The notes under the pieces were generated by a model, which was given only the letters and a program-made list of their open reading frames with translations, ran no database searches and was not told the origin of the DNA. A program made the translations under genes and the position numbers. 64,000 nucleotides of DNA from an uncultured Prevotellaceae bacterium (GTDB taxonomy: Bacteria; Bacteroidota; Bacteroidia; Bacteroidales; Bacteroidaceae): NCBI GenBank assembly GCA_902776475.1, contig CACYQD010000002.1, positions 62,001 through 126,000 on the forward strand, written 5' to 3'. Below are positions 39,368 through 61,767 of the stretch, piece by piece; positions within the stretch are counted from its first letter, which is position 1, and each line of letters starts with the position of its first letter.

Positions 39368-42220
39368 ATGGAATACAATTTCAGAGAGATTGAGAAAAAA
39401 TGGCAAAAGAAGTGGGTGGAGCAAAAAACCTACAAAGTGACTGAGGATGAGAGCAAGAAGAAATTCTATGTGCTGAATATGTTTCCCTATCCTTCTGGAG
39501 CTGGACTGCATGTGGGACACCCGCTCGGATATATCGCATCCGACATCTATGCACGCTACAAAAGACAACAAGGATACAATGTGCTCAACCCTATGGGATA
39601 TGATGCCTATGGACTGCCGGCTGAACAATACGCCATACAGACTGGACAACATCCCGCCATCACTACTGAAGCCAATATCAAAAGATATCGTGAACAGCTC
39701 GACAAAATAGGATTTTGCTTCGACTGGGACCGTGAGGTGCGCACCTGTGAACCGGGCTACTACCATTGGACACAATGGGCTTTCCAAAAAATGTTTGATT
39801 CCTATTACTGCAACAAGACGCAGAAAGCATTGCCCATCTGTCAACTGACCGAAATCTTCGCTCAACATGGTACTGATGGTATCGACGCTGCCTGTTCAGA
39901 AGAACTGTCCTTCACCGCAGAGGAATGGAACAGTTGGGACGAGAAAAAACAGCAGGAGGTGCTCATGAACTACCGCATCGCCTACCTCGGTGAAACCATG
40001 GTGAACTGGTGCGCCGGACTGGGTACGGTGCTCGCCAACGATGAGGTGGTGGACGGCGTGAGCGTCAGAGGCGGATTCCCTGTGGTGCAAAAGAAAATGA
40101 GACAGTGGTGCCTGCGCGTCTCTGCCTACGCTCAGAGACTGCTCGACGGACTGGACCATATCGACTGGACCGACTCACTCAAAGAGACACAACGCAACTG
40201 GATTGGACGCTCGGAAGGTACGGAAATGCAGTTTAACGTGAAAGACAGCGACATCGCATTCACCATCTTCACCACCCGTGCCGACACCATCTTCGGCGTC
40301 ACCTTCATGGTGCTGGCTCCCGAGAGTGAACTGGTGCAGCAACTCACCACTCCAGAACAGAAAAAGGAAGTAGACGAATACCTGGCCTACGTGAAGAAAC
40401 GCACCGAGCGCGACAGACAGATGGATCATAAAGTGACCGGCGTCTTCTCTGGGTCGTATGCCATCAACCCACTGACCAAAGAAGCTATTCCCATCTGGAT
40501 TGCTGAATATGTATTGGCAGGATATGGTACGGGTGCCATCATGGCCGTACCCGCTCACGACAGCCGCGACTATGCTTTCGCCAAGCATTTCAACCTGCCC
40601 ATCATCCCGCTCATCGAAGGAGCTGACATCTCAGAGGAGAGTTTTGATGCCAAAGAGGGTATCGTCATGAACAGTTCAAACGGGGAGTTCTCACTCAACG
40701 GACTGACCGTGAAAGAGGCCATCGAAAAAACCAAACAATACGTCACTGAACAAAACCTCGGACGGGTGAAAGTCAACTACCGTCTGAGAGACGCCATCTT
40801 CTCACGTCAGCGCTACTGGGGTGAGCCATTCCCCGTGTATTACAAAAATGATATGCCATACATGATTCCAGAGGAATGTCTGCCACTCGAATTGCCGGAA
40901 ATCAGCCAATATAAACCCACTGAAGACGGACAACCCCCTCTCGGACATGCCACGAAATGGGCCTGGGACACAAAAAACAATGCCGTCGTTGAGAAAAACC
41001 TCATCGACAATGTCAGCATCTTCCCGCTTGAACTGAACACCATGCCGGGTTTTGCCGGGTCGAGCGCCTACTATCTGCGCTACATGGATCCACATAATGA
41101 CAAGGCCCTGGTGGATCAGAAAATCGATGAATACTGGCAAAACGTGGATCTCTATGTGGGCGGTACGGAGCATGCCACCGGACACTTGATCTACAGCCGG
41201 TTCTGGAACAAATTCCTCCATGACTACGGATACAGCTGCAAAGAAGAACCCTTCCAGAAACTCGTCAACCAAGGCATGATCCAGGGACGAAGCAACTTCG
41301 TCTATCGTGACAACGTAGCCAGTCAGGAAAAAGGACATCCCGTCTTCGTCAGTCTCGGACTCAAAGACCAATACCAGGACACGACGCCCATCCATGTGGA
41401 TGTCAACATCGTGGCCAATGACATCCTCGACATCGAAGCCTTCAAGGCATGGAGACCGGAATATGAAAATGCTGAGTTTGTGCTTGAGGATGGAAAATAT
41501 ATCTGTGGATGGGCCATCGAGAAAATGTCGAAATCGATGTTCAACGTGGTCAATCCCGACATGATCGTAGAGCGTTATGGTGCCGACACGCTGCGCCTCT
41601 ATGAGATGTTCCTCGGACCCGTGGAACAAAGCAAGCCATGGGACACCAACGGCATCGACGGTTGCCACAGATTCCTGAAGAAATTCTGGGCTCTCTTCTT
41701 CGGTAGCGGCAAAGAGAGCAGTGACACCCTACTCGACCTCAACGGAGATGCCACTCCGGAGATGCTCAAGAGCGTTCACAAACTCATCAAGAAAGTATCG
41801 CAGGATATCGAGAGTTTCTCCTACAACACTTCTATTTCGGCCTTTATGATCTGTGTCAATGAACTGTCGCAGATGAAATGCCGCAACCATGAATTGCTCA
41901 AGACCCTCGTCGTGCTCATCGCTCCTTTCGCGCCCCATATCGCTGAAGAACTCTGGGAGACGTTGGGTGAAGAAAGTTCGGTGTGTGATGCCACTTGGCC
42001 CACATACAATGAGCAATATCTGGTGGAAAGTCAGATGCAACTCACCATCTCCTTCAACGGAAAAGCACGCTATCAGATGCTCTTCGACATCAATGCTGAT
42101 AATGCCACCATTGAGAAAGCGGTGCTCGAAGATGAAAGGGCTGCCAAATACATCGGTGACAAACGGGTGGTGAAGGTCATCATCGTACCCAAGAAAATCG
42201 TCAATGTCGTCATCAAATAG
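39368..42220 (+). CDS. leuS: Leucine--tRNA ligase
   Basis: Class I aminoacyl-tRNA synthetase of 950 residues charging tRNA-Leu, with the CP1 editing domain that removes mischarged amino acids. The HIGH motif is [10 protein letters not shown] (about residues 44-53), the editing-domain threonine-rich segment includes [16 protein letters not shown] (about 300), and the KMSKS loop is intact at about 719-723. The C-terminal anticodon-binding domain is complete. First gene of a likely operon with YitT and ITPase genes, at 7-base and overlapping spacing. Confidence 0.97.
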
Positions 42221-42227
42221 TTAGCTC

Positions 42228-43178
42228 ATGACCATTGAGAGACGCAGAATACTTAACGAAGCCAAGGATTATATTTTCATAACCCTTGGCCTTCTGCTCT
42301 ATACGGTGGGATGGACCGTCTTCCTGCTGCCCTACGAAATCGTGACAGGCGGTGTGACAGGTGTCTCGGCTATCATCTTCTACGCTACCAATGCCAATGG
42401 ACATGGAATACCCATCATGTATTCCTACTTCATCATCAACTTCCTGCTCTTGGTGCTGGCCCTGAAAATCCTGGGATGGAGATTTCTCATCAAGACCATC
42501 TATGCCATCTTCATGCTTTCTGCCATGCTCGGTGTCATGCAGGATGTGGTGACCCATCCAGATGGTACTATGACCAAATTGCTCGGCGACCAGGACTTCA
42601 TGTCGCTCATCATTGGTTGTTGTATGACCGGTACGGCACTGGCCATCGTCTTCCTGCACAACGGCAGTACGGGTGGCACGGATATCGTAGCGGCAGTAGT
42701 CAACAAGTACAAGAACATGTCACTGGGAACGGTGCTCATCATCGTCGATCTGTTTATCATCGGCAGCAGTTTCCCCATCTTCATCCTCGCACGCGACTTC
42801 ACCATCACCGATGCCCTCTACAAAATTGTCTTCGGTCTTTGTACGATGGTGGTGGAGAACTTCATGCTCGACTATGTGATGAACTCCCGGCGGGAGTCGG
42901 TGCAGTTTTTCATCTTCTCCAAAAAATACCAGGAAATCGCCAATGCCATCGGTACGGAGATGGAGCATGGCGTGACCATCCTCGATGGTCACGGCTGGTA
43001 CACTGGACAGGAGATGAAGGTGCTCTGTATTCTGGCCCGCAAGAGAGAAAGTGTGAGCATGTTCAGACTCATCAAATCCATCGACCCCAACGCCTTCGTC
43101 AGTCAGAGCAGCGTCATCGGTGTCTATGGAGAGGGTTTTGATGAAATGAAAGTAAAAGTAAAAGAAAAAAAGTCATGA
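42228..43178 (+). CDS. YitT family membrane protein
   Basis: A 316-residue protein with five to six hydrophobic segments in the first 190 residues ([20 protein letters not shown], GLxxTGGVTG-type loop read here as [30 protein letters not shown]) followed by a cytoplasmic DUF2179 domain (about 225-310: [20 protein letters not shown]). The family is widespread; the transported substrate is not established. Its stop overlaps the ITPase start in ATGA. Confidence 0.92.
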
Positions 43179-43759
43179 GAATCGTTTTCGCCACCAATAA
43201 CGCCCATAAACTATCTGAAATCAGGCAGATCCTGGGTGATTCTGTCGAGGTTCTTTCATTGGCAGACATCGGATGCCATGTGGATATCCCTGAAACCGCC
43301 GACACCCTGGAGGGTAATGCCCTGCAGAAAGCACAGTATGTGGTTGACCATTATCACATCAGCTGTTTCGCCGATGACACTGGTCTGGAAGTGGACGCAC
43401 TCAACGGTGAACCTGGCATTTACTCCGCTCGTTATGCCGGAGAAGGACATGACAGTGAGGCCAATATGACCAAACTTCTGAATAAATTAGGAGAAAATAA
43501 CAATCGGAAGGCACGATTCCGCACTGTTATTGCGTTATTATTGGTGAAAGGGGATGAAATCGAACAGCATCTCTTCGAAGGTATCGTCAACGGTACCATC
43601 ATCCGTGAGCGCAAAGGAACAGCGGGTTTCGGATATGACCCCATCTTCCAACCCGACGGATACGAGGCTACATTCGCCGAACTGGGCAATGACATCAAAA
43701 ACAAAATCTCACACCGCGCGAAAGCAGTGGAAAAACTGAAAGCGGCCTTCGCCGATTGA
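43175..43759 (+). CDS. rdgB: Non-canonical purine NTP pyrophosphatase (ITPase, RdgB/HAM1)
   Basis: Cytoplasmic house-cleaning enzyme of 194 residues hydrolysing ITP, dITP and XTP to monophosphates. Family motifs are visible: [12 protein letters not shown] at the N-terminus, [27 protein letters not shown] (active-site aspartates at about 69-70), and [13 protein letters not shown] with the [10 protein letters not shown] end motif. Overlaps the YitT gene by four bases. Confidence 0.96.
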
Positions 43760-43808
43760 AGATTGATGGCGGCCTTTGGCCGATTGAAAATTGAAGATTA
43801 AAAATTAA

Positions 43809-43827
43809 CTCAACTTTTCAAGTTGAG
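43809..43827 (+). terminator. Hairpin downstream of the ITPase gene
   Basis: CTCAACTT / AAGTTGAG arms around a three-base loop, 50 bases after the stop codon and following ATTGAAA heptads; no T-tract, so weak evidence as a terminator. Confidence 0.4.
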
Positions 43828-43850
43828 AGGAGTGTTGGAGACTAAGCATA

Positions 43851-44040
43851 CTTATCCCTCTCCCTATGGGAGAGGTTAGGTGAGGGAGTGAGAGTCAAGG
43901 TCCCCAACAAGAAGAGCAAACTTATCCCTCTCCCTATGGGAGACAAAACAAACTTATCCCTCTCCTTTGGGAGACAAAACATACTTATCCCTCTCCCTTT
44001 GGGAGAGGTTAGGTGAGGGAATTGAGGTTAGGTGAGGGAA
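43851..44040. repeat. Array of CTCTCCC/GGGAGAG palindromic repeats
   Basis: Four units each starting CTTATCCCTCTCC at 43851, 43921, 43953 and 43984. The first two are exactly 70 bases apart, the others are shortened units of about 32 bases. Each unit contains a self-complementary CTCTCCCTATGGGAGAG-type core and most contain AGGTTAGGTGAGGGA. The gap 43760-44077 consists of ATTGAAA heptads, a small hairpin and this array. Confidence 0.85.
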
Positions 44041-44077
44041 GTAACAAGGGAATTAACAAAAACTCAGTTTTATATTT

Positions 44078-46363
44078 GTGTTACGACTATTGTTTATCTT
44101 GCTGATGACGGTTTGTTCCGTTGGTGCCCGTGGTGCAGCCATTGGGACCTGGAACTGTTTTCTGGCCTATAGCGACATCACTGAGATACAACCTACAGGC
44201 AACAAGGTGTATGTGCTCAGTTCAAAAGGACTGTTCTCTTACCAACTCTCTGACCAGAGCGTGCAGACGTATCACAAGATGAACGTGCTCAACGACTGCA
44301 ACATCGCTCACATCACCTACTGTAAAGCTGCCCACAGGCTCATCATCGTCTATGAGAACCAAAACATCGACCTGCTTGATGACAATGGAGACGTGGTCAA
44401 TATCTCTGACTACTACAACAAGTCGATGACCGCCGATAAAACCATCAATGAGGTCAAAGTGATGGGCAGCAATGCTTTTGTGGCCACCAATTTCGGCATC
44501 CTCAAAATCAATGTCGCTGACGCAGAGATCACCGCCACTTACAACCTGGGCAGAAAGGTGATGTCAACCACTGTTTTTGAGGATGAACTCTACGCCGCAT
44601 GTGGGTCGGAAGGTATTTTCAAGGCAAAGCTCTCCGACAACCTGCTCGACAAGAAAAACTGGACAAGAGAGAGCAACGTCAGCGCCAACCATATCTACAC
44701 TTTCGACAATGGTCTCATGGCGGCTGTCAATGGCGTCATCTACAGGAAAGACCAACAAGAATGGAAAAAAATCTTCGACCGTTACTTTGACTTCTGTCAC
44801 CTCACAGGAGAAAAACTGATTTTCGGAGAGGCTAATTCCGTTTGGATCTTTGAAAAAGCCACCAACCCACAGATCATCAAAAAAGGTGACGCTGATATCA
44901 AAGCCTTCTCCTACGATGTGACCAATGACTGTTTCTGGAGCAATCAGGCCGACGGAAAACTCTACTCCCTCACCCTCGAAGACAAGACCATCGTACCGAA
45001 AATCACCAACATTAACCCCGACGGACCGAAATACAACTATTTCGGATTCCTGACATACGGCAACAACACGCTGTACTCCTGCGGTGGTGGTTTTGATGCT
45101 TTTGCCGAACTCTTCAGGGAGGCTACCGTACAGACCTACAGCGAGGACGAATGGACCATCTATCAAGATGACATCAAAGCCACCGTGGGCAACCTCTTCC
45201 AGGACATGACCTGTCTGGACTTTGACCCAAAGAACCCCGCACACGTCTTTGTGGGCAGTAGGGCCGGTCTCTATGAATATCTCAACGGACGGTTTGTCAA
45301 GTACTACAACTGCGAAAACAGTCCACTGATGTATTCCACAGCGGACAACAACCCCAACTATATCCTCACCCTCGGTGTGAAATTCGACAAAAACGGCAAC
45401 CTCTGGTGCCTCAACAGTCTGGCAGAAGCAAGATCCATCCTGGAACTCAAGACCGACGGCACCTGGGAAGACCATCACCAGGAAATCCTCATGGACGACA
45501 ACCTCAGAAGCCTGCCCAACATGAAGTCGCTCATCATCGACAGCCGGGGACTGCTGTGGTTTGCCAACAACCATTGGTCGGTGCCGGGATTCTATTGCTT
45601 CGATCCCAAAACGGAAGCCATCAACCACTATACTTCCTTCATCAATGAGGATGGTACACGACTGACTCCCAACGGCATCCGATGCGTGGCGGAAGACAAG
45701 GAAGGAAACATCTGGATCGGATCGAGCGTGGGTCCACTGCTCCTGCCTGCAGAAGATATCAATGACGGCTCCAATGCCGTGCTCCAACAAGTGAAAGTAC
45801 CGCGCAACGACGGCACCAATTTCGCTGACTACCTGCTCAGCGGTGTGGATATCACCTGCATCGCCGTGGATGGCGGCAACAGAAAATGGTTTGGCACCAA
45901 CGGCAACGGCGCCTACCTCATCAGCGACGACAACATGTCGCAGATCCACCATTTCCTTTCCAGCAACAGCATGCTGCTCTCCGACAACATCGAGTCGATC
46001 GCCATCAATGACCAGACAGGAGAGGTGTTCTTCGGCACCGACAACGGCTTGTGCTCATTCATGAGCGACGCCACCGCCACCAATGAGACGATGACCAAAG
46101 ACAACGTCTATGCCTATCCCAATCCGGTGAGACCGGACTATACCGGACTCATCACCGTCACCGGACTCACCATGGATGCCGACGTCAAAATCGTCACCGC
46201 CAACGGCACCCTCGTGGCTGAGGGAAGGAGCAACGGCGGCACCTTCACCTGGGACGGTTGCGACGAAGGCGGAAAACGAGTGGCCTCCGGCGTGTATATG
46301 GTCCAGACAGCCACCAGCGACGGTAAGAAAGGTACGGTTTGCAAAATAGCCATCGTCAGGTAA
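44078..46363 (+). CDS. porZ: Type IX secretion system protein PorZ (two beta-propellers plus sorting domain)
   Basis: A 761-residue exported protein matching the architecture of PorZ of Porphyromonas gingivalis: signal peptide (MLRLLFILLMTVCSVGARG), beta-propeller repeats across about 25-670 (GLFSYQLSDQSVQTYHKMN..., ENGNLWCLNS-like and GNIWIGSSVGPLLLP blades) and a C-terminal type-A sorting domain at about 677-761 (AYPNPVRPDYTG ... GVYMVQTATSDGKKGTVCKI). PorZ sits on the cell surface and supports the A-LPS attachment step of type IX cargo. The start codon is GTG (44078), which overlaps the last base of a TATATTTG sequence that looks like a -7 box; if that box is real, translation must begin further in, for example at the TTG at 44090. 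The absence of a -33 makes the GTG start more likely. Confidence 0.85.
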   Translation: MLRLLFILLMTVCSVGARGAAIGTWNCFLAYSDITEIQPTGNKVYVLSSKGLFSYQLSDQSVQTYHKMNVLNDCNIAHITYCKAAHRLIIVYENQNIDLLDDNGDVVNISDYYNKSMTADKTINEVKVMGSNAFVATNFGILKINVADAEITATYNLGRKVMSTTVFEDELYAACGSEGIFKAKLSDNLLDKKNWTRESNVSANHIYTFDNGLMAAVNGVIYRKDQQEWKKIFDRYFDFCHLTGEKLIFGEANSVWIFEKATNPQIIKKGDADIKAFSYDVTNDCFWSNQADGKLYSLTLEDKTIVPKITNINPDGPKYNYFGFLTYGNNTLYSCGGGFDAFAELFREATVQTYSEDEWTIYQDDIKATVGNLFQDMTCLDFDPKNPAHVFVGSRAGLYEYLNGRFVKYYNCENSPLMYSTADNNPNYILTLGVKFDKNGNLWCLNSLAEARSILELKTDGTWEDHHQEILMDDNLRSLPNMKSLIIDSRGLLWFANNHWSVPGFYCFDPKTEAINHYTSFINEDGTRLTPNGIRCVAEDKEGNIWIGSSVGPLLLPAEDINDGSNAVLQQVKVPRNDGTNFADYLLSGVDITCIAVDGGNRKWFGTNGNGAYLISDDNMSQIHHFLSSNSMLLSDNIESIAINDQTGEVFFGTDNGLCSFMSDATATNETMTKDNVYAYPNPVRPDYTGLITVTGLTMDADVKIVTANGTLVAEGRSNGGTFTWDGCDEGGKRVASGVYMVQTATSDGKKGTVCKIAIVR

Positions 46364-46370
46364 ACTCATC

Positions 46371-47375
46371 ATGGAGGAAGAACGTAGAATCGGTTGGGTG
46401 GATATGGCCAGAGGCATTTGCATGATGGCCATCCTGTTCTTCCACGCTGAGAAATATGATGTCGGTGAGGAAATCATCCCCTACGCCTGTTACGTCAACA
46501 ATGCCATCATCTTTTTCTTCTTCGTTTCAGGTTATCTCTTCAAGAAACCCCAAAAGGCCTTTTCCCTGCGCCACAAGCTGCGTTCCATCCTTCGGACGAT
46601 GATCATCCCCTATTTTGTCTTTACGTTGATTCTGGCGCTTCCTAAGGCCTTTGTACACGATGACATGAGCATCACTGAGGTGTTGACGCTCATCCTCACG
46701 GGACATGCGTCATGGTTTATCGCAGCCCTGATCGTGTGTGAACTGTTTTTTGCCTTCCTGCTTCATGTCACGGAAGGAAAAGGAAAATGGCTTTTCATCT
46801 GCTCTGCCCTACCCTATTTCCTCATCGCCTCGTGTTACCATTTCCTGTCTGCCGACGCCTTGCGGAACATCAATGTGTGGTGCTGGCAGAACGCGTGTCT
46901 GCTGTTGTTTTTCATGTATGCCGGATATCATTACCGGAAAATGGAACCACAGTTGCATTCCATCCATCCTGCCTTCTATGGTGGGATGGTCATCCTGCTG
47001 ATTGTCTTGAAATATCTCCAGCAGATGAACGGCATGCTGTTGACGCTTGAACCCATCACGGTTTCCTCATTCACCCTGTTGCTCATCGACGGATGCTTGG
47101 GCATCATGGTGCTCCTGGTCATATTCCGCCGGATGCCACAAGTCAGACTGGTGGAGTGGACAGGCAAGAACTCCTTGTTTTATTATTTTATCTGCGGCGG
47201 CGTGCCTTTCATGGTCAGCAAAGGACTCCAATTGATAGGTTTTCCCTATCAAGGCATCTATGTTCAAGTGATTGTCGCCTTTCTCCTGGTTTATATCTTT
47301 TCCACCATCATCGTTTACGGGTTGAATCATTTATATTCTTTTTTGTTTTTAAAAAATAAAAGAAAAAAAGAATAG
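46371..47375 (+). CDS. Acyltransferase 3 family membrane protein
   Basis: A 334-residue integral membrane acyltransferase with about ten hydrophobic segments. The N-terminal RIGWVDMARGICMMAILFFH is the family hallmark, in which the catalytic arginine-histidine region lies (His25). Such proteins O-acylate surface polysaccharides or lipids. It starts 8 bases after porZ and may share its transcript. The 3' end is extremely A+T-rich (encoding FLFLKNKRKKE) and adjoins the putative replication origin. Confidence 0.9.
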   Translation: MEEERRIGWVDMARGICMMAILFFHAEKYDVGEEIIPYACYVNNAIIFFFFVSGYLFKKPQKAFSLRHKLRSILRTMIIPYFVFTLILALPKAFVHDDMSITEVLTLILTGHASWFIAALIVCELFFAFLLHVTEGKGKWLFICSALPYFLIASCYHFLSADALRNINVWCWQNACLLLFFMYAGYHYRKMEPQLHSIHPAFYGGMVILLIVLKYLQQMNGMLLTLEPITVSSFTLLLIDGCLGIMVLLVIFRRMPQVRLVEWTGKNSLFYYFICGGVPFMVSKGLQLIGFPYQGIYVQVIVAFLLVYIFSTIIVYGLNHLYSFLFLKNKRKKE

Positions 47376-47753
47376 GATGATGTCGCTTGGAAAAGTGGAT
47401 AACTTTGAACGGTTGGTGTGATGTTGAAGTTATGATCAGATAGATGGATTTATCCACATTCTTGTGAATTCTTATATCTTTGATTATCAATAGTTTATTA
47501 AGTTATCCACACTTTTAAGAAGTGGTTGATAAGTGATATGTGGATAACAGTTGACTGGGATAGAGTGTGGAAAACAGGTTGAAAAAAAGAGATTTTTAGA
47601 GGGGATTATGCACAAAAAATGGGATATGATCAGGGATTGTGGATATCAATAGGGTTTTTTATACACTTATTCACAAGTTTTCCACAATCTTTTCCACAAA
47701 AATTTTTCCAAGTGATGGAAAAAGGTTATTTTTGTGAGCAAAACAGTCTGACC
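47376..47753. other. Candidate chromosomal replication origin (oriC)
   Basis: Non-coding region with ten DnaA-box-like 9-mers in about 305 bp. Perfect TTATCCACA: 47450-47458 (+), 47503-47511 (+), 47539-47547 (-). Matching TTWTNCACA: 47566-47574 (-), 47606-47614 (+), 47667-47675 (+), 47678-47686 (+), 47690-47698 (+). One mismatch: 47394-47402 (-) and 47638-47646 (-). An A+T-rich, A-tract-rich stretch (47339-47376) borders it and could be the unwinding element. Supporting context: parS sites to the right and an apparent change of G/C bias. dnaA itself is not in the window. Confidence 0.75.
47727..47734 (+). promoter_or_regulatory. Candidate -7 element of mutS
   Basis: TATTTTTG lies 20 bases before the mutS ATG, next to the last DnaA box; no clear -33 element. 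DnaA binding could influence this promoter. Confidence 0.45.
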
Positions 47754-50381
47754 ATGGCAAAGAAGGAAAATGGACTCACACCGATGATGAAGCAGTTTTT
47801 CACGTTGAAGGCGAAACATCCTGATGCGCTGATGCTTTTCCGTTGTGGTGACTTCTATGAGACCTATTGTGAGGATGCCATCGCTGCCTCGAAGATATTG
47901 GGCATCACGCTGACGAAGCGCAACAATGGTGGCATCTCGGGTTCGGCGGAGATGGCAGGTTTTCCCCATCATGCACTGGATACCTATCTGCCGAAACTGA
48001 TCCGGGCAGGACGGCGTGTGGCCATCTGCGACCAACTGGAAGATCCGAAACTCACCAAGACATTGGTGAAGCGGGGCATCACGGAGTTGGTGACTCCTGG
48101 CGTGGCACTCAATGACAATGTGCTCAACTACAAGGAGAACAATTTCCTGGCGGCCGTGCATTTCGGAAAGGTGGCTTGTGGTGTGGCTTTCCTGGATATC
48201 TCCACCGGTGAGTTTATCACTGGCGAGGGAACCTATGACTATGTGGAGAAACTGTTGGGCAATTTCCAACCCAAGGAAGTGTTGTATGACCGGTCGAGAA
48301 AGGCTGATTTTGAGAAGTTTTTCGGCACGAAAATGTGTGTGTTTGAGTTGGATGACTGGGTTTTCACCGAACAGACCGCCCGGCAAAAGTTGTTGAAGCA
48401 TTTTCGTACGAAAAACCTGAAAGGATTCGGTGTCGATCATATCGTCAATGGAGTGGTGGCGGCAGGAGCCATCCTGCAGTATCTGGAGATGACCCAGCAC
48501 ACCCAAATCGGGCATATCACATCTATTTCACGCATTGAGGAAGAAAAATATGTCAGGCTCGATAAATTCACAATCCGTTCGCTGGAGTTGGTCGAACCCA
48601 TGCAGGATGAGGGAAAGTCCTTGTTGAATGTCATCGACAAGACGATAACCGCCATGGGAGGCCGTTTGCTCCGGCGTTGGGTGATGTTTCCGCTCAAGGA
48701 TGAGAATCCCATCAACCAACGGTTGGATATTGTGGATTATTTCTACCGTGAACCATCGTTCAGGGAGTGTGTCGATGAGCAGTTGCACTTGATCGGCGAT
48801 TTGGAGCGTATCATCTCAAAAATCGCCACTGGCCGTGTGTCACCCCGTGAGATGATGCAGTTAAAAGTGGCCTTACAAGCGATGGAACCTGTCAAGACGG
48901 CTTGTATGAGTGCCGATAATGCGGTCTTGAAACGACTGGGCGAGCAAATCAATATCTGCCGGACAATCAGGGACCGTATCGCCCGTGAGATACAAAATGA
49001 CCCTCCATTCCAAGTCAACAAAGGCAACGTGATCCGCAGTGGAGTCAATCCACAGTTGGATGAGTTGCGCGACATCGCCTACAGCGGCAAGGACTATTTG
49101 TTGAAGATACAGGAGCGCGAGGCTGAAATCACAGGTATCTCCTCTTTGAAAATAGGCTATAACAATGTGTTTGGCTATTATCTGGAGGTGCGCAACACTT
49201 ACAAAGACAAGGTGCCGGCCGAATGGGTCAGAAAACAGACATTGGCCCAGGCTGAGCGGTATATCACTCAGGAACTGAAGGAATATGAGGAAAAAATTCT
49301 GGGTGCCGAGGATAAAATCCTGTCGTTGGAAACCCAACTTTTCAATGAACTGGTGAGTGCTGTGCAGGAGTATATCCCCGCTATCCAGATCAATGCCAAT
49401 CTCGTGGCACAGCTCGACTGTCTGTTGTCGTTTGCCATGGTCTCTGAGGAGAATCATTACATGCGGCCGGTCATTGACACCTCGGAAGTCATAGACATCA
49501 AGGCAGGCAGGCATCCTGTCATCGAGACCCAACTGCCCCTTGGAGAGCGGTATGTGCCCAATGATATCCTGCTTGACAATGAGCGTCAGCAGATCATCAT
49601 CATCACGGGTCCCAATATGGCCGGTAAATCGGCTCTGCTGAGACAGACAGCCCTCATCGTACTCATGGCCCAGATCGGTTGTTTCGTGCCGGCAGAACAA
49701 GCGAGAATCGGTCTGGTGGATAAGATTTTCACCCGTGTGGGAGCGTCAGACAACATCTCCGTGGGAGAATCTACTTTTATGGTGGAGATGACGGAGGCTT
49801 CCAATATCCTCAACAATGTGTCGTCGCGCTCATTGGTGCTCTTCGATGAGTTGGGACGTGGCACTTCCACCTACGATGGTATCTCCATTGCCTGGGCCAT
49901 CGTGGAATACCTGCATGAGCATACCCGGGCACGCGCTCGTACGCTCTTCGCCACCCATTATCATGAACTGAATGAGATGGAGAAGAATTTCTCGCGTATC
50001 AAGAATTATAATGTGAGCGTGAAGGAAATCGACGGAAAGGTTATTTTCCTGCGCAAACTGATGCGGGGAGGTTCGGAACATTCCTTCGGTATCCATGTGG
50101 CGGAAATCGCCGGTATGCCGAAAAGCATAGTGCGGCGTGCGAATGTCATTCTCAAACAGTTGGAGGCAGACAACAGCAGTGTCGGCAGCGTGGGCAAACC
50201 ATCTGCGCAATCCATCCAACAGTCAAGGGAAGGCATGCAACTCAGTTTCTTCCAGCTTGATGATCCTGTGCTGATGCAGGTGAGGGATGAGATTTTAGGC
50301 CTTGACATCAATCATCTCACCCCTGTGGAAGCTCTCAACAAACTCAACGAAATCAAGAAAATAGTGAGTGGGAAGTCTTGA
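47754..50381 (+). CDS. mutS: DNA mismatch repair protein MutS
   Basis: Mismatch-recognition ATPase of 875 residues. The N-terminal domain starts [15 protein letters not shown] and carries the mismatch-wedge motif, here [10 protein letters not shown] (FxxGxFYE, about residues 27-36). The Walker A loop [13 protein letters not shown] lies at about 618-630, with the ABC-type signature and Walker B ([16 protein letters not shown]) around 690-705. The frame remains open upstream through the origin region, but ATG 47754 gives the family N-terminus and avoids the DnaA boxes. Followed by repeat-rich DNA. Confidence 0.97.
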
Positions 50382-50384
50382 ATG

Positions 50385-50521
50385 CCCCTACCCAACTTTC
50401 TCAAATTGAAAGGAGTGTAGGAGTTTGGTAGTATAGGAGTTTAGACAAGTCTTAAACTCCCCTACCCAACTTTCTCAAATTGAAAGGAGTTTAGGAGTTT
50501 GGTAGTATAGGAGTTTAGACA
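50385..50521. repeat. Two 63-bp direct repeats downstream of mutS
   Basis: Copies at 50385-50447 and 50459-50521, 74 bases apart, agree except at about one base. Each begins CCCCTACCCAACTTTCTCAA and contains the small hairpin CTTTC/GAAAG and GGAGTTTGGTAGTATAGGAG. Unlike the nearby palindromic array, I see this unit only here; related CTCAA..TTGAG words appear near 43809 and 50909. Confidence 0.8.
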
Positions 50522-50585
50522 TTACTCTTGCAAGTCATAGCCTATACTGACGATAAATTATCAGTGTTATGGGTTTCGCCGATAG

Positions 50586-50790
50586 TTCTCTCCCTTTGGG
50601 AGACAAAACATACTTATCCCTCTCCCTTTGGGAGAGGTTAGGTGAGGGATTGAGAGTCATGGTTCCCAACAAGAAGAGCAAACTTATCCCTCTCCCTTTG
50701 GGAGAGGTTAGGTGAGGGAGTGAGAGTCATGGTCCCCAACAAGAAGAGCAAACTTATCCCTCTCCCTTTGGGAGAGGTTAGGTGAGGGAA
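50586..50790. repeat. 70-bp periodic array of CTCTCCC/GGGAGAG repeats
   Basis: Three full units start CTTATCCCTCTCC at 50613, 50683 and 50753, exactly 70 bases apart, preceded by a partial unit at 50586. Each unit has the palindrome CTCTCCCTTTGGGAGAG, then GTTAGGTGAGGGA and a linker ending CCCAACAAGAAGAGCAAA. Together with the 63-bp repeats it fills most of the gap 50382-50949; the remaining 150 bases show no further feature. Confidence 0.88.
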
Positions 50791-50949
50791 TTAACAAAAC
50801 TCAGTTTCCTTCTCCTCTCACTCAATCGAACTATTGTTTTCACCAATAGTTCTCATGCTCAGGAGAGAAAAAGTACTATTGTTCAAACTCCAAATCTCCT
50901 AAACTCTCAAAAGTTGAGCAAATGCGAAACTTGAACTCCCCTACCCTAT

Positions 50950-51801
50950 TCAATGAATCTTCTTCATCCATTTTCCTCCGATCATACAGAGAATTCCGAT
51001 GATGACGAAGGGGATGCTGAGCAGTTGTCCCATATCGAGGGGCAAGCTGTCCTCGAAATCCACCTGATTGATTTTGGTGAATTCAATGAAGAAACGAGCT
51101 GTGAAAATCAGCGTGAGGCACAGACCGAAGAAAAAGCCGGTACCCACTTTCTCAGGTCTGCGGCGGTAGATGAACCATCCCACGAAGAAAAAGATAAAAT
51201 AGACTATAGCCTCATAGAGTTGTCCGGGATGTCGTGGTTCGGTGGCCAACGAGGGTTCTGCAGCCTGGAAGATGAATGCCCAGGGCACGTCAGTCACCTT
51301 GCCGATGATTTCCGAATTCATGAGATTGCCAAGACGGATAAAACAGGCGGTGACGGGTGTGGCAATGGCAATATTGTCGAGGACCTGCCAGAGGCTAAGG
51401 TGCGTTTTCTTGAAATACAGATAGAGTGCTATCATCAGTCCCAATGTTCCACCATGTGATGCAAGTCCCTCATAACCAGTGAATTTCCATGAACCATCCG
51501 CCATTTTATGGATGGGCAGGATCATTTCGATGACATGATTGAAACTGCTCAGGAAATAGCCTGGTTCGTAGAAAAGGCAATGTCCTAAGCGGGCACCGAT
51601 CAAGATACCTAAGAAACAGTAGATAAAGAGTGGATCAAATAGCTCGTCTTTGATTTTCTGTTCCTTATATAGTTTTTTCACGATAAAATAGGCCAGGACC
51701 AGTCCGATCAGCCAACAGAGGGAATACCATCTGATGCCGAAGTGACCGATGGTGAATGCCATCTCATCGGGATTCCATACGATATAGAGCAATGTATTCA
51801 T
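50950..51801 (-). CDS. lgt: Prolipoprotein diacylglyceryl transferase
   Basis: Inner-membrane enzyme adding diacylglycerol to the lipobox cysteine of prelipoproteins; first step of lipoprotein maturation, used by the SusD, GH16 and other lipoproteins encoded here. The 283-residue protein has seven hydrophobic segments, the conserved [10 protein letters not shown] and SHGGTLGL motifs, and the Lgt signature [13 protein letters not shown] at about 160 (the glycine-asparagine-x-x-asparagine-x-glutamate pattern). Downstream of ychF by 60 bases on the same strand. Confidence 0.96.
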
Positions 51802-51861
51802 GGAAATGACGGGTTGAAAAACAACGATTTTATGGGGTGATTTTATGGGGTCTGTATCAAA

Positions 51862-52962
51862 TCAGACATTGAAACGGAAATGCATGATGTCACCATCCTG
51901 GACGACGTAGTCCTTGCCTTCAATGCCCATTTTTCCAGCTTCGCGAACAGCAGCTTCAGAACCATATTTGATATAGTCTTCGTATTTGATGACTTCCGCG
52001 CGGATAAAACCTTTCTCAAAGTCGGTATGGATGACTCCAGCACACTGTGGTGCTTTCCACCCTTTGTGGTAGGTCCATGCCTTCACCTCCATCTCGCCAG
52101 CGGTGATGAAGGTCTCCAGATTGAGCAGTGAATAGGCTTTCTTGATCAGACGGTTGACACCGCTTTCTTCCAATCCCAGTTCATCGAGAAACATTTTCTT
52201 GTCCTCATAACTCTCGAAACTGGCGATGTCTTCTTCTGTCTTGGCAGCGATGACCAGTACTTCGGCACCCTCTTCGCGTGCAGCTTCTTCGATGCGATGG
52301 GAATAATCATTGCCGTTCAAAGCACTCGACTCATCGACGTTGCAGACATAGAGCACAGGTTTGGCGGTGAGCAGGAAAAGGTCGTGGGCAGCCTGCTGTT
52401 CATCCTTGGTTTCAAAAGTCACAATACGGGCATTCTGGCCTTTCTCGAGTACTTCTTTATAGGCTGTGAGGACCGACACTTCTATCTTGGCTTCCTTATT
52501 GCCAACGGAGGCTGCTTTCTGTTGTTTGGCCAGGCGAGACTCGATGGTTTCAAGGTCTTTCAGTTGCAGTTCGGTATCAATGATTTCCTTGTCACGGATG
52601 GGGTCGATGGTACCATCAACATGGGTGATGTTGTCATCATCGAAACAGCGCAGCACATGGATGATGGCATCAGTCTCACGGATATTACCCAGGAATTTGT
52701 TGCCTAACCCCTCCCCTTTCGATGCACCTTTGACAAGACCGGCGATATCCACGATTTCACAGGTAGCTGGGACAATCCGTCCAGGATGCACCAGTTCAGC
52801 AAGACGGGTGAGTCTTTCGTCGGGCACAGTGATGACACCCACATTGGGTTCGATAGTACAGAAAGGGAAATTGGCTGCCTGTGCCTTAGCACTCGACAAA
52901 CAATTGAACAAGGTGGACTTACCCACATTGGGCAGTCCGACAATACCGCATTTCAATGCCAT
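51862..52962 (-). CDS. ychF: Ribosome-associated ATPase/GTPase YchF
   Basis: A 366-residue Obg-family P-loop protein that prefers ATP and is linked to ribosome function and oxidative stress. G1 is GLPNVGKSTLFN (residues 8-19), G3 is DIAGLVKGASKGEGLGNKFL, and the usual NKxD is altered to NVDE (YVCNVDESSA), as expected for YchF. A coiled coil (about 125-165) and a C-terminal TGS domain (from about 280) complete it. Promoter at 53000-53031. Confidence 0.97.
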   Translation of the reverse strand: MALKCGIVGLPNVGKSTLFNCLSSAKAQAANFPFCTIEPNVGVITVPDERLTRLAELVHPGRIVPATCEIVDIAGLVKGASKGEGLGNKFLGNIRETDAIIHVLRCFDDDNITHVDGTIDPIRDKEIIDTELQLKDLETIESRLAKQQKAASVGNKEAKIEVSVLTAYKEVLEKGQNARIVTFETKDEQQAAHDLFLLTAKPVLYVCNVDESSALNGNDYSHRIEEAAREEGAEVLVIAAKTEEDIASFESYEDKKMFLDELGLEESGVNRLIKKAYSLLNLETFITAGEMEVKAWTYHKGWKAPQCAGVIHTDFEKGFIRAEVIKYEDYIKYGSEAAVREAGKMGIEGKDYVVQDGDIMHFRFNV

Positions 52963-52999
52963 TTTTCAGAATTTTAATGATATACGTATGATTTGACGG

Positions 53000-53031
53000 C
53001 AAAGTTACGATTAAGCGAGCGAAAAGCCAAA
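53000..53031 (-). promoter_or_regulatory. Promoter of ychF within the dispersed palindromic element
   Basis: On the minus strand TTTG (53028-53031), 20-base spacer containing TTTCGCTCGCTTAATCG, and TAACTTTG (53000-53007), 37 bases before the ychF ATG. The element extends to about 53050 with a hairpin (GAAAAG...CTTTTC), resembling the copies upstream of leuS. Confidence 0.8.
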
Positions 53032-53057
53032 TTTATTTGAACTTTTCCGACATTATA

Positions 53058-53390
53058 CCCCTCTCCCTGAGGGAGAGGACGGGTGAGGGGGTTCTTTTCT
53101 CCAGTGTTATTGATATTATCCCATCACCTAGCCTCTCCCACAGGGAGAGGGATAGGTTTGCTTTGTCTCCCAAAGGGAGAGGAATAGGTTTGCTTTTTCT
53201 CCGTCAGGGATACAAATTATATTCATAAAGGAAACAGCCCCTCTCCCTGAGGGAGAGGACGGGTGAGGGGGTTCTTTTCTCCAGTGTTATTGATATTATC
53301 CCCTCACCTAACCTCTCCCACAGGGAGAGGGATAGGTTTGCTTTTTCTCCCACAGGGAGAGGGATAAGTTTGCTTTTTCTCCCAAAGAAT
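53058..53390. repeat. 180-bp spaced direct repeats of CTCTCCC/GGGAGAG type
   Basis: Two copies of about 107 bp, 53058-53164 and 53238-53344, begin CCCCTCTCCCTGAGGGAGAG and differ at a few positions. Each holds two palindromes (CTCTCCC...GGGAGAG) plus a conserved linker TTCTTTTCTCCAGTGTTATT. Further partial units extend each copy (53165-53195, 53345-53390). They fill most of the gap 52963-53432 between ychF and polA. Confidence 0.85.
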
Positions 53391-53432
53391 AATTTTTATA
53401 ATGATTTTTTCTCCTGTGAGGGAAAAAGTATT

Positions 53433-56198
53433 TTAATGAGCTTCGAGCCAGTTACTCCCCCACCCTGCGTCAGCCACGAGGGGAACTTTCAGTTGATATG
53501 CATTTTCCATCTCTTGGAGGACGATGCGCTCCACGGTTTCTTTTTCCTCTGGAAAGACACTGAAATTGAGTTCGTCGTGTACTTGAAGGATCATTTTGGA
53601 TTTCAGGTTTTCTGCTTTAAACCGTTCAAAGATGCGGATCATGGCCACTTTGATGATGTCTGCTGCTGATCCTTGTATCGGTGCATTGATGGCATTGCGC
53701 TCTGCAAATCCCCTGACGGTGGCATTCCGGCTGTTGATGTCAGGCAGATATCTTCTGCGTTTGAAGAATGTCTCCACATACCCTTTTTCGCGAGCCACCT
53801 CTTTGCAGGCTTCCATGTAGGATTTCACTTTTGGGAACGATTCGAAATAGCCATCGATGAGTTGACGGGCTTCAGCGCGCTCGATTTCCAGTCTTTCAGC
53901 CAGACCGAATACGGTGATGCCATAGATGATGCCGAAATTGGCTCTTTTGGCCTTTCGCCGCTGGTCGCTGGTCACATCTTCTATCTTTTCCTTATAGATA
54001 TTGGCAGCTGTGGCGGCATGGATATCATGCCCTTCTTTGAAGGCTTGAATCATATTCTCATCGTCGCTGAGATGAGCCATGACCCTCAGTTCTATCTGAC
54101 TGTAGTCAGCGGAGAAGAAGAGACATCCATCTTCCGGAATGAAGGCTTTACGGATTTCCTTTCCGTCCTCCCCTCTTACGGGGATGTTTTGCAGATTGGG
54201 ATCACTTGATGACAGTCTGCCAGTGGCCGTCACAGTTTGGTTGAAAGAAGTATGGATATGTCCGGTTTTGGGATTGATGAGTTCGGGAAGGTTGTCAATA
54301 TAGGTACTGAGGAGTTTTTTCAAACCCCTGAATTGAAGAATTTTTTCAACAATCTCATGTTTACCTCTGAGGGTTTGCAGTACTTCCTCCGAGGTAACAT
54401 ATTGTCCGGTTTTGGTCTTTTTTGGCTTTTCGATGATTTTCATTTTATCGAAAAGGATGTCGCCGACCTGTTTTGGAGAAGAGATATTGAATTGTTCTCC
54501 AGCGAGTGAGTATATTTGCTCTTCGATCTCATTCAGGCGCTGCGTGAAGGTGCGTGAGGTCTCAGCCAGCGACTCTGTATCGATGCGCACGCCGTTGCGC
54601 TCCATCTCGGCCAGTACTCTGACGAGTGGCATTTCGATGTCATGGAAAAGCTGTCTTGCCCCCACCTCATCGAGTTTGGGATCCAGGATGTTTTTCAGTT
54701 TGAGGGTGACGTCGGCATCCTCAGCTGCATATTCATACACTTCTGCAGGTTTCAGATCGCGCATGCTTTTTTGGTTTTTGCCTCGGGGTCCGATGAGTTC
54801 ATCAATATGGATGGTTTTGTAATTGAGATAGGCTTCGGCCATGAAATCCATGTTGTGTCTCAATTCGGGTTGAATGAGATAGTGAGCGATCATGGTGTCC
54901 CACAATTCACCTTTGAGTTCGATGCCGTAGTTGGCGAGTACTTGGAGGTCGTATTTGATGTTTTGTCCGATTTTAGTGATTTTCGGATTTTCGTAGAGCG
55001 GTCTGAAGATTTCGATGATTTTTTGCGTTTCTTCCCTTTTTGGAGACAGAGGAACATAAAACGCCTGATTTTCCTTGACGGAGAAGCTGATTCCCACCAG
55101 TTCTGCCTCAATGGGAGAAGTAGAAGTCGTTTCCGTGTCTAAACTCAAAAAATCGAATGTCAATAAAAAATCACATAATTTTTGGATATCTTCTTCTTTT
55201 TCAATGAGTTGATAATCGTGAGGTATGGTTTTTAAGCTCTCAAAACTCGATTTTTTGTCGGCTTCCGTATCCTCGGACGGAAAATCTCCGAATAAATCGA
55301 GTTGATAAGCAGGCTTTTTAACATTTTTTTGGGTTTGTCCCAAAAATTTTTCCGTCAGGCTTTTGAACTCCAATTCGGTAAAGATTTCCTTGAGTTGCTT
55401 TTCATCGGGTTGGGTGTAGAGCAGTTCATCGAGATGGAGTGTGACAGGCACGTCGGTTTTGATGGTTGCGAGGAAGTGTGACATCTTGATGTCCTCGACA
55501 TGTTCTTCCACTTTTTTCTTTAGAGCCCCTTTCAGTTGATCAGTATGATTGAGCAGGTTGTTGACCGAACCGAATTCAGCGATCAGTTTGACGGCGGTCT
55601 TCTCCCCCACCCCAGGACATCCTGGGAAATTGTCGGCGGAGTCACCCATCAGGGCGAGCAGTTCCACCACCTGTTCTGGTGTGTCGATGCCGTATTTTCC
55701 TTTGATCTCATTCGTTCCGAGGATTTCATATCCTCCTCCGTGTCTTGGCCGGTACATCAGCACATTGTCACGAATCAATTGACCATAGTCTTTATCAGGT
55801 GTCAACATATAGGTCATCACGTTCTCGCGTGAAGCCTGCATGGCCAGGGTTCCGATGATATCATCAGCTTCATAGCCATCTACGAGCAGAACGGGAATAC
55901 GGAGGGCTTTGAGGATATTCTTGATGATAGGTACGGCAAGAAGGATATCCTCAGGTGTTTTCTCCCGTTGTGCTTTATATTCTGGAAAAGCCTCGCTTCT
56001 GAATGTAGGTCCGTGAGGATCGAAGGCCACGCCGATATATTTGGGTTTTTCCTTGTTGAGAATCTCATGCAATGTGTTGCAGAACCCTAAGATGGCTGAG
56101 GTATTCAACCCTTTTGAATTGATTCTTGGATTCTTGATGAAGGCATAATATGACCTATAGATCAAGGCGTAGGCATCAATGAGAAACAGTTTTTCCAT
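53433..56198 (-). CDS. polA: DNA polymerase I
   Basis: A 921-residue polymerase for Okazaki fragment maturation and repair. The N-terminal 5' nuclease (about 1-290) shows LIDAYALIYRSYYAF and GYEADDIIGTLA; the 3'-5' exonuclease (about 340-510) retains the metal-binding DTETTS motif, so proofreading is likely intact; the polymerase domain has motif A DYSQIELRVMAHLS, motif B RRKAKRANFGIIYG and motif C VHDELNFSV. Minus strand, preceded by A+T-rich DNA shared with the diverging polyprenyl synthase gene. Confidence 0.97.
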   Translation of the reverse strand: MEKLFLIDAYALIYRSYYAFIKNPRINSKGLNTSAILGFCNTLHEILNKEKPKYIGVAFDPHGPTFRSEAFPEYKAQREKTPEDILLAVPIIKNILKALRIPVLLVDGYEADDIIGTLAMQASRENVMTYMLTPDKDYGQLIRDNVLMYRPRHGGGYEILGTNEIKGKYGIDTPEQVVELLALMGDSADNFPGCPGVGEKTAVKLIAEFGSVNNLLNHTDQLKGALKKKVEEHVEDIKMSHFLATIKTDVPVTLHLDELLYTQPDEKQLKEIFTELEFKSLTEKFLGQTQKNVKKPAYQLDLFGDFPSEDTEADKKSSFESLKTIPHDYQLIEKEEDIQKLCDFLLTFDFLSLDTETTSTSPIEAELVGISFSVKENQAFYVPLSPKREETQKIIEIFRPLYENPKITKIGQNIKYDLQVLANYGIELKGELWDTMIAHYLIQPELRHNMDFMAEAYLNYKTIHIDELIGPRGKNQKSMRDLKPAEVYEYAAEDADVTLKLKNILDPKLDEVGARQLFHDIEMPLVRVLAEMERNGVRIDTESLAETSRTFTQRLNEIEEQIYSLAGEQFNISSPKQVGDILFDKMKIIEKPKKTKTGQYVTSEEVLQTLRGKHEIVEKILQFRGLKKLLSTYIDNLPELINPKTGHIHTSFNQTVTATGRLSSSDPNLQNIPVRGEDGKEIRKAFIPEDGCLFFSADYSQIELRVMAHLSDDENMIQAFKEGHDIHAATAANIYKEKIEDVTSDQRRKAKRANFGIIYGITVFGLAERLEIERAEARQLIDGYFESFPKVKSYMEACKEVAREKGYVETFFKRRRYLPDINSRNATVRGFAERNAINAPIQGSAADIIKVAMIRIFERFKAENLKSKMILQVHDELNFSVFPEEKETVERIVLQEMENAYQLKVPLVADAGWGSNWLEAH

Positions 56199-56303
56199 AA
56201 ATAATAGTTATAATAGTCTTTTTGGATGTCGTCTGGCTTGTTGGAGACTCATCACGTCATAGGTGAGACAACAACATTTTTCTGTGTAAAAGTACGAATT
56301 ATT

Positions 56304-56335
56304 TTTGATTATTACGAGATAAAAGCGTAATTTTG
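56304..56335 (+). promoter_or_regulatory. Promoter of the polyprenyl synthase gene
   Basis: TTTG (56304-56307), 20-base spacer, TAATTTTG (56328-56335), 17 bases before the ATG at 56353; a full consensus match. Confidence 0.8.
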
Positions 56336-56352
56336 TATCAAAATTCTTTGCA

Positions 56353-57330
56353 ATGGATTATCTATCACTGATTAAGAAACCTATCGATCATGATTTGTCG
56401 GACTTCATTAGGTTGTTTGACGAGTCATTATCACATACTGATGGGCTGCTTTCTGATACCTTGCAACACATCCGTAAGCGAGGCGGTAAGCGTATGCGAC
56501 CAATATTGACCCTGTTGGTGGCAAAAAACTATGGTGAGGTAAACTCTACGACTCAGCAAGCAGCATTGGGCTTGGAGTTATTGCATACAGCCAGTTTGGT
56601 GCATGACGATGTGGTGGATGAGAGTACGGAACGCAGAGGACAGCCTTCGGTGAATGCCTCATTCAACAATAAAGTCGCTGTGTTGGTGGGAGATTATATC
56701 CTTTCTACCGCTCTTTATCATGTTTCTCTGACTTCAAATGACGAGATTATCACCAGTTTGGCTCAACTGGGCCGCACACTTTCAAGTGGTGAGTTGCTTC
56801 AGATGAACAATTTCAGAGAACAAGGCATTTCTGAGGAGGTTTATTATGAAGTGATCAGTAAAAAGACTGCCTCTTTGTTTGCTACCTGTGCCCAGAACGG
56901 TGCCTTATCCGTTGGTGCTTCGGCCGATGAAGTGAATGCAGCCCGTGATTTTGGTCATGCCATCGGTATGATTTTCCAAATCAGAGATGACATTTTTGAT
57001 TATTTTGATTCCAAAGAGATCGGCAAACCAACCGGCAATGATATGGCAGAGGGAAAATTGACCCTTCCGATTATCTATGCATTGAAGAATTATGGTTATG
57101 ATTCGATGTTGAATCTTGCCCGGAAGGTCAAAAACGGCAGTATTAACCATGATGAAATTGCCGTTTTGGTGGATTTTGCCAAGGAACGTGGTGGTATCGA
57201 CTATGCTGAGCAGAAAATGAATGAATTTAGTGAGAAAGCTCAACAGTATATTGATTTTCACGTGAAACAATCGGAAGTTCGTGAAGCCCTTTCCAATTAT
57301 CTCTCATTTGTGGCTTTAAGGGATAAATAA
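56353..57330 (+). CDS. Trans-polyprenyl diphosphate synthase
   Basis: A 325-residue isoprenyl chain-elongating enzyme, probably making the side chain of menaquinone. The first aspartate-rich motif is LVHDDVVDES (about residues 81-90) and the second is IRDDIFDYFD (about 209-218), both intact; the RGGKRMRPILTLL segment at about 43-55 is the substrate-binding signature. Product chain length cannot be read reliably; octaprenyl or longer is typical of this group. It uses the precursors supplied by the MEP pathway enzyme IspG. Contains within its 3' end a parS-like sequence (57254-57269). Confidence 0.93.
   Translation: MDYLSLIKKPIDHDLSDFIRLFDESLSHTDGLLSDTLQHIRKRGGKRMRPILTLLVAKNYGEVNSTTQQAALGLELLHTASLVHDDVVDESTERRGQPSVNASFNNKVAVLVGDYILSTALYHVSLTSNDEIITSLAQLGRTLSSGELLQMNNFREQGISEEVYYEVISKKTASLFATCAQNGALSVGASADEVNAARDFGHAIGMIFQIRDDIFDYFDSKEIGKPTGNDMAEGKLTLPIIYALKNYGYDSMLNLARKVKNGSINHDEIAVLVDFAKERGGIDYAEQKMNEFSEKAQQYIDFHVKQSEVREALSNYLSFVALRDK
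57254..57269. other. parS-like site (14 of 16) inside the polyprenyl synthase gene
   Basis: ATTTTCACGTGAAACA compared with the consensus TGTTTCACGTGAAACA: mismatches only at the first two positions. It lies in codons for DFHVKQ. Together with 61391 and 62322 it forms a cluster to the right of the putative origin. Confidence 0.4.
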
Positions 57331-57430
57331 GTAATTTCCTTCGGATTTTTGCTTATTACTATGATGTAATTTCCCTCGGATTTTGCTTTTAGCTATGATG
57401 TAATTTCCCTCGAATTTTTACTTTTAGCTA
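57331..57430. repeat. Three tandem 34-35 bp repeats downstream of the polyprenyl synthase gene
   Basis: Units starting GTAATTTCC at 57331, 57366 and 57400, each continuing CTCGGATTTTTGCTT... with slight variation. The first begins at the gene's stop codon. Confidence 0.75.
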
Positions 57431-57438
57431 TTCAATAA

Positions 57439-57520
57439 ATCGGGATTGCAAATCATCATGGATGAACGATGCTTTGTTGCATCTGGATAAAATCCTTTCA
57501 TCCGTATTTGCAATCCCGAT
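57439..57520. terminator. Long hairpin between convergent genes
   Basis: Arms ATCGGGATTGCAAAT (57439-57453) and its complement (57506-57520) are perfect over 15 bp, enclosing 52 bases with an inner GGATGAA/TTCATCC pairing. Placed between the polyprenyl synthase (+) and deoC (-) genes, it can serve as a bidirectional terminator; a MITE-like origin is also possible. Confidence 0.55.
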
Positions 57521-57586
57521 TGTTTATTGGGCTTCATTCAGGTCAGTAAGATTGCTTCAAATGAAGTATTCTTACTATACGATACC

Positions 57587-58501: not shown

Positions 58502-58534
58502 TTTTTTATTATTTTGGTTAAACATTTTTTGAGG

Positions 58535-58640: not shown

Positions 58641-58691
58641 ATGATGTATTTGGTGTTGTGGGGAGGGGTGATGGTGTTTTTTTGGAGTATT

Positions 58692-59486: not shown

Positions 59487-59542
59487 GAGGTGTTTTTTCT
59501 GATTTCGATTTCAAAGATAGTATTTTTTTGTGAAATCTCCAA

Positions 59543-61381: not shown

Positions 61382-61390
61382 GGGTGGGGG

Positions 61391-61761: not shown

Positions 61762-61767
61762 GCGTGG

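What the first reader, a model, noticed from the sequence alone, without database searches (positions are those of the whole stretch)
47376..47753. Dense DnaA-box cluster: probable chromosomal origin between an acyltransferase gene and mutS
Ten DnaA-box-like 9-mers (three perfect TTATCCACA, five more fitting TTWTNCACA, two with one mismatch) fall within about 305 bp of non-coding DNA, on both strands, next to an A+T-rich A-tract stretch at 47339-47376. The site is not beside dnaA, so gene-order annotation would miss it. Box positions are read directly; function as oriC follows from known DnaA binding and is inference here.
Basis: partly seen in the sequence, partly recalled or inferred. Interest (0 to 1): 0.82.

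Follow-up and report, generated by a model that had tools for sequence, protein, structure and literature searches.

The report
Chromosomal replication origin beside mutS
This stretch is very probably where a Prevotella-like bacterium starts copying its chromosome; in relatives the same kind of site lies far from the gene for its starter protein, an arrangement already reported for this group of bacteria.

Summary
The genome is a 55-contig draft, so I tested relatives. A cluster of 5-10 boxes lies near mutS in 17 of 23 congeneric neighbourhoods that I chose. In two single-contig chromosomes sampled skew is mostly negative on one side and positive on the other, and all nine placed 16S matches in three genomes point away from the cluster. 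A terminus is therefore very unlikely. Weaker points: the local skew minimum is within 1 kb of the cluster in only 5 of those 17, and one complete relative (G016) fits poorly. dnaA is 0.8-1.2 Mb away in three relatives and not found in this draft. A Prevotella intermedia paper reports such an oriC and calls it common in Bacteroidetes (PMC4755523). So: an ordinary oriC, newly located. An oddity: nearby genes mostly point towards it.

The parts
47376..47753 (.). Region holding the predicted oriC (378 bp, 67% A+T), between acyltransferase and mutS
   Evidence: Acyltransferase ORF ends at 47375; mutS ATG taken at 47754 (relatives); composition and boxes
47394..47698 (.). Ten-box DnaA-box cluster (3 perfect TTATCCACA, 5 further TTWTNCACA, 2 other one-mismatch boxes; 6 on +, 4 on -)
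47325..47374 (.). Candidate duplex-unwinding stretch, A+T-rich, inside the 3' end of the acyltransferase ORF; role inferred
   Evidence: Fourth least stable 50-mer of the window
47461..47510 (.). Second, weaker A+T-rich stretch inside the cluster (76% A+T); role inferred
   Evidence: Profile
47312..47312 (.). Minimum of cumulative GC skew of the window and of the whole 195-kb contig
46371..47375 (+). Left neighbour: acyltransferase (PF01757 Acyl_transf_3)
47754..50381 (+). Right neighbour: mutS
39368..46363 (+). leuS-yitT-rdgB-porZ block, pointing towards the origin
   Evidence: leuS points towards the cluster in 13 of 17 cluster-bearing genus genomes with leuS in range

Best explanation
The region 47376-47753 is the chromosomal origin of replication (oriC) of this Prevotella-like bacterium. 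DnaA is expected to bind the ten boxes, form an oligomer, and open the duplex at an adjacent A+T-rich stretch, either 47325-47374 or 47461-47510. Helicase would then load and two forks would leave left and right. Shown here: the box cluster, its rarity, the contig skew minimum, similar clusters in relatives, and chromosome-scale skew and 16S orientation in complete or near-complete relatives. Inferred: DnaA binding, the site of opening, and initiation.
For: Ten boxes in 305 bp against a maximum of 3 in 1000 shuffles. Contig-wide GC-skew minimum at C2:109312 = window 47312. G049, the relative with the most similar MutS, has ten boxes at -408 to -122 from mutS. Clusters of 5-10 boxes in 17 of 23 other genus neighbourhoods; 17 of 19 clusters checked overlap no ORF of 150 aa or more, the exceptions being one box at an ORF end in G007 and the upstream-extended mutS frame in this genome. 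In 48 scattered control stretches (725 kb) no 500 bp held more than 2 boxes. In single-contig G024 sampled skew is negative in 7 of 9 stretches of the left replichore and positive in 8 of 10 of the right; in G045, 8 of 9 and 9 of 11 (values; I assigned replichores by hand around the clusters near 1.510 and 2.764 Mb, leaving out the one G024 stretch that holds the cluster). All 9 16S matches placed in G024, G045 and contig C3 of G010 point away from the cluster, three of them partial. P. intermedia oriC was predicted at a skew transition with multiple DnaA boxes and not near dnaA (PMC4755523, passages read).
Against: No DnaA binding, coverage or initiation data. dnaA was not found in the draft, so no cognate initiator could be examined. 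The minimum of skew over the fetched 20-133-kb stretch is within 1 kb of the cluster in only 5 of the 17 relatives (G028, G016, G045, G004, G034); in G049 it is 1.0 kb off and in the other 11 it is 2.5-14 kb off. G016 has a cluster and a local minimum 453 bp from it, but its chromosome-wide samples do not switch cleanly there, and one of its two 16S matches (a shortened one) points towards the cluster. 6 of 23 neighbourhoods show no cluster of 4 or more in the stretch fetched. Coding sequence within 15 kb is mostly head-on (0.72 here). No DnaA-trio repeat passed my scan.
Confidence: 0.92

Rival explanations
1. The cluster is a DnaA-titrating or DnaA-regulatory site (datA- or DARS-like; these names are recalled) or a DnaA-controlled mutS promoter, not the origin.
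For: It lies directly upstream of mutS, and a mutS promoter may well lie in the same 378 bp (inference; no promoter scan was run).
Against: Contig-wide skew minimum at the site. In 16 of the 18 cluster-bearing genus genomes the cluster is not directly next to mutS. Chromosome-scale skew (G024, G045) and 16S orientation (G024, G045, G010) fit an origin at it. No other dense cluster in the rows seen.
Confidence: 0.05
2. The skew switch marks the terminus, and the boxes are incidental.
For: Most coding sequence within 15 kb points towards the site (0.72 here, 0.64 summed over 19 genomes), as expected around a terminus.
Against: The skew is a minimum, the sign of an origin. 9 of 9 placed 16S matches in G024, G045 and G010 point away. 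In scattered stretches only 0.46 (G024) and 0.41 (G045) of coding sequence points towards it. Dense DnaA boxes are an origin feature (established knowledge).
Confidence: 0.01
3. It is the origin of an integrated plasmid or mobile element.
For: It is placed beside different genes in different species.
Against: The nine neighbouring proteins scanned are house-keeping, envelope or membrane proteins (LeuS, Ham1/RdgB, PorZ, MutS, Lgt, YchF, PolA, YitT, an acyltransferase). Clusters recur in the same part of the chromosome in 17 of 23 genus neighbourhoods. The skew of a 195-kb contig turns on it. I did not search the window for mobile-element genes.
Confidence: 0.02

Closest known systems
Predicted oriC of Prevotella intermedia OMA14 chromosome I (PMC4755523)
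   Same: Multiple DnaA boxes at a GC-skew transition, 476 bp, not near dnaA; the paper says oriC is commonly far from dnaA in Bacteroidetes (passages read)
   Different: Its flanking genes are not given in the passages I read (mutS occurs 0 times in its main text); its sequence was not compared
Classical bacterial oriC with DnaA boxes and an unwinding element (general knowledge; BUS model in PMC8287927, passages read)
   Same: Clustered DnaA boxes on both strands next to A+T-rich DNA
   Different: dnaA far away in the relatives where distance could be measured; no DnaA-trio array passed my scan

Membership tests
Bacterial chromosomal oriC (DnaA-dependent) | Dense cluster of DnaA boxes between genes | tested here: met
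   four boxes fall in an upstream extension of the mutS frame if that is used
Bacterial chromosomal oriC (DnaA-dependent) | Cumulative GC-skew minimum at the site | tested here: met
   Met on the 195-kb contig; chromosome-scale sign change in sampled G024 and G045; not clean in G016; local minimum within 1 kb in 5 of 17 relatives. Not testable over this 55-contig draft as a whole
Bacterial chromosomal oriC (DnaA-dependent) | rRNA operons oriented away from the site | tested here: met
   In relatives only: 10 of 11 placed 16S matches in four genomes (9 of 9 without G016); a twelfth, on another G010 contig, could not be placed; none found in this draft
Bacterial chromosomal oriC (DnaA-dependent) | A+T-rich unwinding element beside the boxes | tested here: inconclusive
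   47325-47374 is the fourth least stable 50-mer of the window but lies in the end of an ORF; opening not testable
Bacterial chromosomal oriC (DnaA-dependent) | DnaA-trio repeats at a short spacing from a box | tested here: inconclusive
   No run passed my own stricter filter; the published program was not run
Bacterial chromosomal oriC (DnaA-dependent) | Adjacency to dnaA (common in bacteria, not obligatory) | tested here: not met
   No DnaA domain found in the draft, so untestable here; in relatives dnaA is about 0.84 (G024), 0.79 (G045) and 1.24 Mb (G016) from the cluster. Reported as usual in Bacteroidetes (PMC4755523)
Bacterial chromosomal oriC (DnaA-dependent) | DnaA binding, autonomous replication, coverage maximum | not testable with these tools
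   Needs reads or bench work

The most novel reading that the evidence does not exclude
In this genus the origin behaves as a locally mobile, fast-evolving module. Its boxes turn over even between this species and G049, and the nearest marker genes change (mutS, polA, or nrdB/DUF3108), while it stays within tens of kilobases of one chromosomal region. In most of the genomes examined the genes around it point into it, so that essential genes such as leuS would be transcribed against the departing forks.
Probability: 0.3. Interest if true: 0.5.

Novelty: new member of a known kind. Interest (0 to 1): 0.3.

Why it matters
Locating oriC in a Prevotella-like genus where it is not beside dnaA gives the coordinate needed to orient chromosomes and to read growth rates from metagenome coverage. 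The comparison also shows that in this genus neither mutS nor leuS adjacency by itself marks the origin, and it points to a testable local excess of head-on genes around it.

Tried and rejected
Position 5' of mutS as a conserved landmark: rejected. None of 80 named mutS loci has three or more boxes within 800 bp upstream, though 11 of the 80 contigs end sooner than that; 4 of the 80 (L007 9 boxes, L011 10, L015 5, L027 4) have a cluster elsewhere in the fetched flanks of at most 10 kb. Of 24 genus neighbourhoods only this genome and G049 have the cluster there.

leuS as a landmark for the whole family: rejected. I fetched the stretch downstream of leuS in 20 of the 61 genomes (five stretches under 20 kb; 18 of the 20 outside the genus). 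Only G062 (same genus, 7 boxes) and G069 (another genus, 6) have a cluster of 5 or more; G086 and G106 have 4; G077, same genus, has 3.

Alignment of the region with G049: 68% mean column identity, poorly anchored; one box (47503) matches perfectly and one (47450) with one change. Rfam: no match in the window at gathering score.

Literature: one search for oriC + Prevotella + 'DnaA box' + mutS held no paper. Searches gave listings; the one directly relevant paper was PMC4755523 (passages read). PMC6323995, PMC8287927 and PMC5771137 were read as passages only; PMC5771137 simply sets oriC at dnaA in its P. gingivalis maps. The rest were seen as listings only.

Full report
What was checked. The region lies between an acyltransferase ORF that ends at 47375 and mutS, whose ATG I take at 47754 (families). 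The mutS frame is open from 47619, but in relatives L007 and L011 the ORF begins at the residue matching 47754. The region holds ten 9-mers within one mismatch of TTATCCACA over 305 bp, three perfect and eight fitting TTWTNCACA. Dinucleotide-keeping shuffles reached at most 3. The rest of the window has no 400-bp stretch with two such boxes; the rest of contig C2 has one with three. In the whole draft (3.64 Mb, 55 contigs, 93.6% complete) the 26 perfect boxes and the 75 TTATNCACA sites show no other close group. The TTWTNCACA list of 223 was shown only to row 100, so a cluster made mainly of TTTTNCACA on later contigs is not excluded.

GC skew. In the window the cumulative GC skew falls to a minimum at 47312 and then rises. 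Adding the rest of contig C2 gave a minimum over all 195,226 bases at 109312, the same base, 82 bp left of the first box. Because the other 54 contigs are unordered, the chromosome-wide minimum cannot be computed here.

Relatives. MutS was found at E <= 1e-200 in 53 of 60 genus genomes, this one included. I fetched mutS neighbourhoods of 23 of the other 52, chosen by me for similarity and contig length, not at random. Two choices were guided: the G010 stretch by perfect boxes seen, and the G045 stretch was extended by 53 kb towards its skew change after the first 80 kb showed no cluster. The G054 stretch covers the upstream side only. A cluster of at least five boxes in 500 bp was present in 17 of the 23 (G049, G007, G050, G055, G028, G035, G019, G024, G016, G045, G010, G003, G026, G004, G037, G034, G054). 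It was not seen in the stretches of G018, G020, G058, G044, G059 and G051, of which G020 and G059 have three boxes. G062, fetched through leuS, has seven; G077 has three. As a control, 48 scattered stretches of G024, G016 and G045 (725 kb) never held more than two boxes in 500 bp. Of the 19 clusters (this genome, the 17, G062), 17 overlap no ORF of 150 aa or more; in G007 one box lies at an ORF end, and here four boxes lie in the upstream extension of the mutS frame.

Origin or terminus. In single-contig G024 sampled skew is negative in 7 of 9 stretches of the left replichore and positive in 8 of 10 of the right, around the cluster near 1.510 Mb (the stretch containing the cluster is left out). 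In single-contig G045 the counts are 8 of 9 and 9 of 11 around the cluster near 2.764 Mb, and the sign changes again between the samples at 1.0 and 1.2 Mb, which is the opposite side. I assigned the replichores by hand. 16S matches point away from the cluster in all nine cases placed in G024, G045 and contig C3 of G010, three of them partial; in G016 one of two points away; one G010 match lies on another contig. G016 also lacks a clean chromosome-wide switch in the samples. On the fine scale the fit is weaker: the skew minimum of the fetched stretch is within 1 kb of the cluster in 5 of 17 relatives (G045 202 bp, G004 148, G034 225, G016 453, G028 833), 1.0 kb off in G049, and 2.5-14 kb off in the other 11, G024 included (10.9 kb); in G062 it is 8.6 kb off. 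On balance the site is an origin, not a terminus.

dnaA. Neither the DnaA ATPase domain nor its C-terminal domain was found in the draft, while 11 of 11 relatives tested have dnaA; it is most likely missing from the assembly (inference). In G024, G045 and G016 it is about 0.84, 0.79 and 1.24 Mb from the cluster. This fits the published statement that oriC is commonly far from dnaA in Bacteroidetes (PMC4755523, passages).

Neighbours. I traced 20 marker proteins by tblastn; the names of nrdA, nrdB, DUF3108, ispB, deoC, dtd, uvrC, apt and mnmG are recalled from the sequences and come from no call. leuS points towards the cluster in 13 of the 17 cluster-bearing genus genomes with leuS in range (this one included) and away in 4 (G024, G010, G003, G026); G016 has no leuS in the stretch. 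The nearest marker on the other side is mutS (this genome, G049, G019), polA (G035, G055, G037) or nrdB and DUF3108 (G003, G026, P. jejuni L007; DUF3108 also in G010); unmarked genes may lie between. Outside the genus the leuS link is mostly not seen. The region aligns poorly between this genome and G049 although both have ten boxes.

Mechanism. From established knowledge of DnaA-dependent initiation, DnaA fills the boxes and opens nearby A+T-rich DNA. Candidates are 47325-47374, inside the end of the acyltransferase ORF, and 47461-47510. This step is inferred. My scan did not find a DnaA-trio array; the published search rules (PMC8287927, passages) are laxer and were not reproduced in full.

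Oddity. Within 15 kb of the cluster, 0.72 of coding sequence in ORFs of 150 aa or more points towards it here, and 0.64 summed over 19 genomes; 17 of 19 are above 0.5, while G010 (0.37) and G003 (0.47) are below. In scattered stretches of G024 and G045 only 0.46 and 0.41 do. The ORF caller was crude and the genomes share ancestry, so these are not 19 independent cases. An excess of head-on genes at an origin is not expected and would be worth a proper study.

Verdict.

Noticed in passing
window 39368-63976: Most genes on both sides of the origin point towards it (0.72 of coding bases within 15 kb), so leuS, polA and others would be transcribed head-on to the forks; above 0.5 in 17 of 19 genus genomes, against 0.46 and 0.41 in scattered stretches of two complete relatives.
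   Followed up: partly
L001, L002, L003, L006, L013: Contigs of several close relatives begin 18-590 bp before the mutS match; whether the origin region itself breaks assemblies was not tested.
   Followed up: no
whole draft genome G000: No DnaA domain and no 16S rRNA match in a 93.6% complete draft, most likely missing from the assembly.
   Followed up: partly
window 1-38000 versus 46000-64000: G+C is 0.45-0.60 left of about 38 kb and 0.41-0.53 right of the origin; further along the contig it rises to mostly 0.51-0.56.
   Followed up: partly
G016: A single-contig relative whose sampled skew and one of two 16S matches disagree with its box cluster; rearrangement or misassembly is possible.
   Followed up: no
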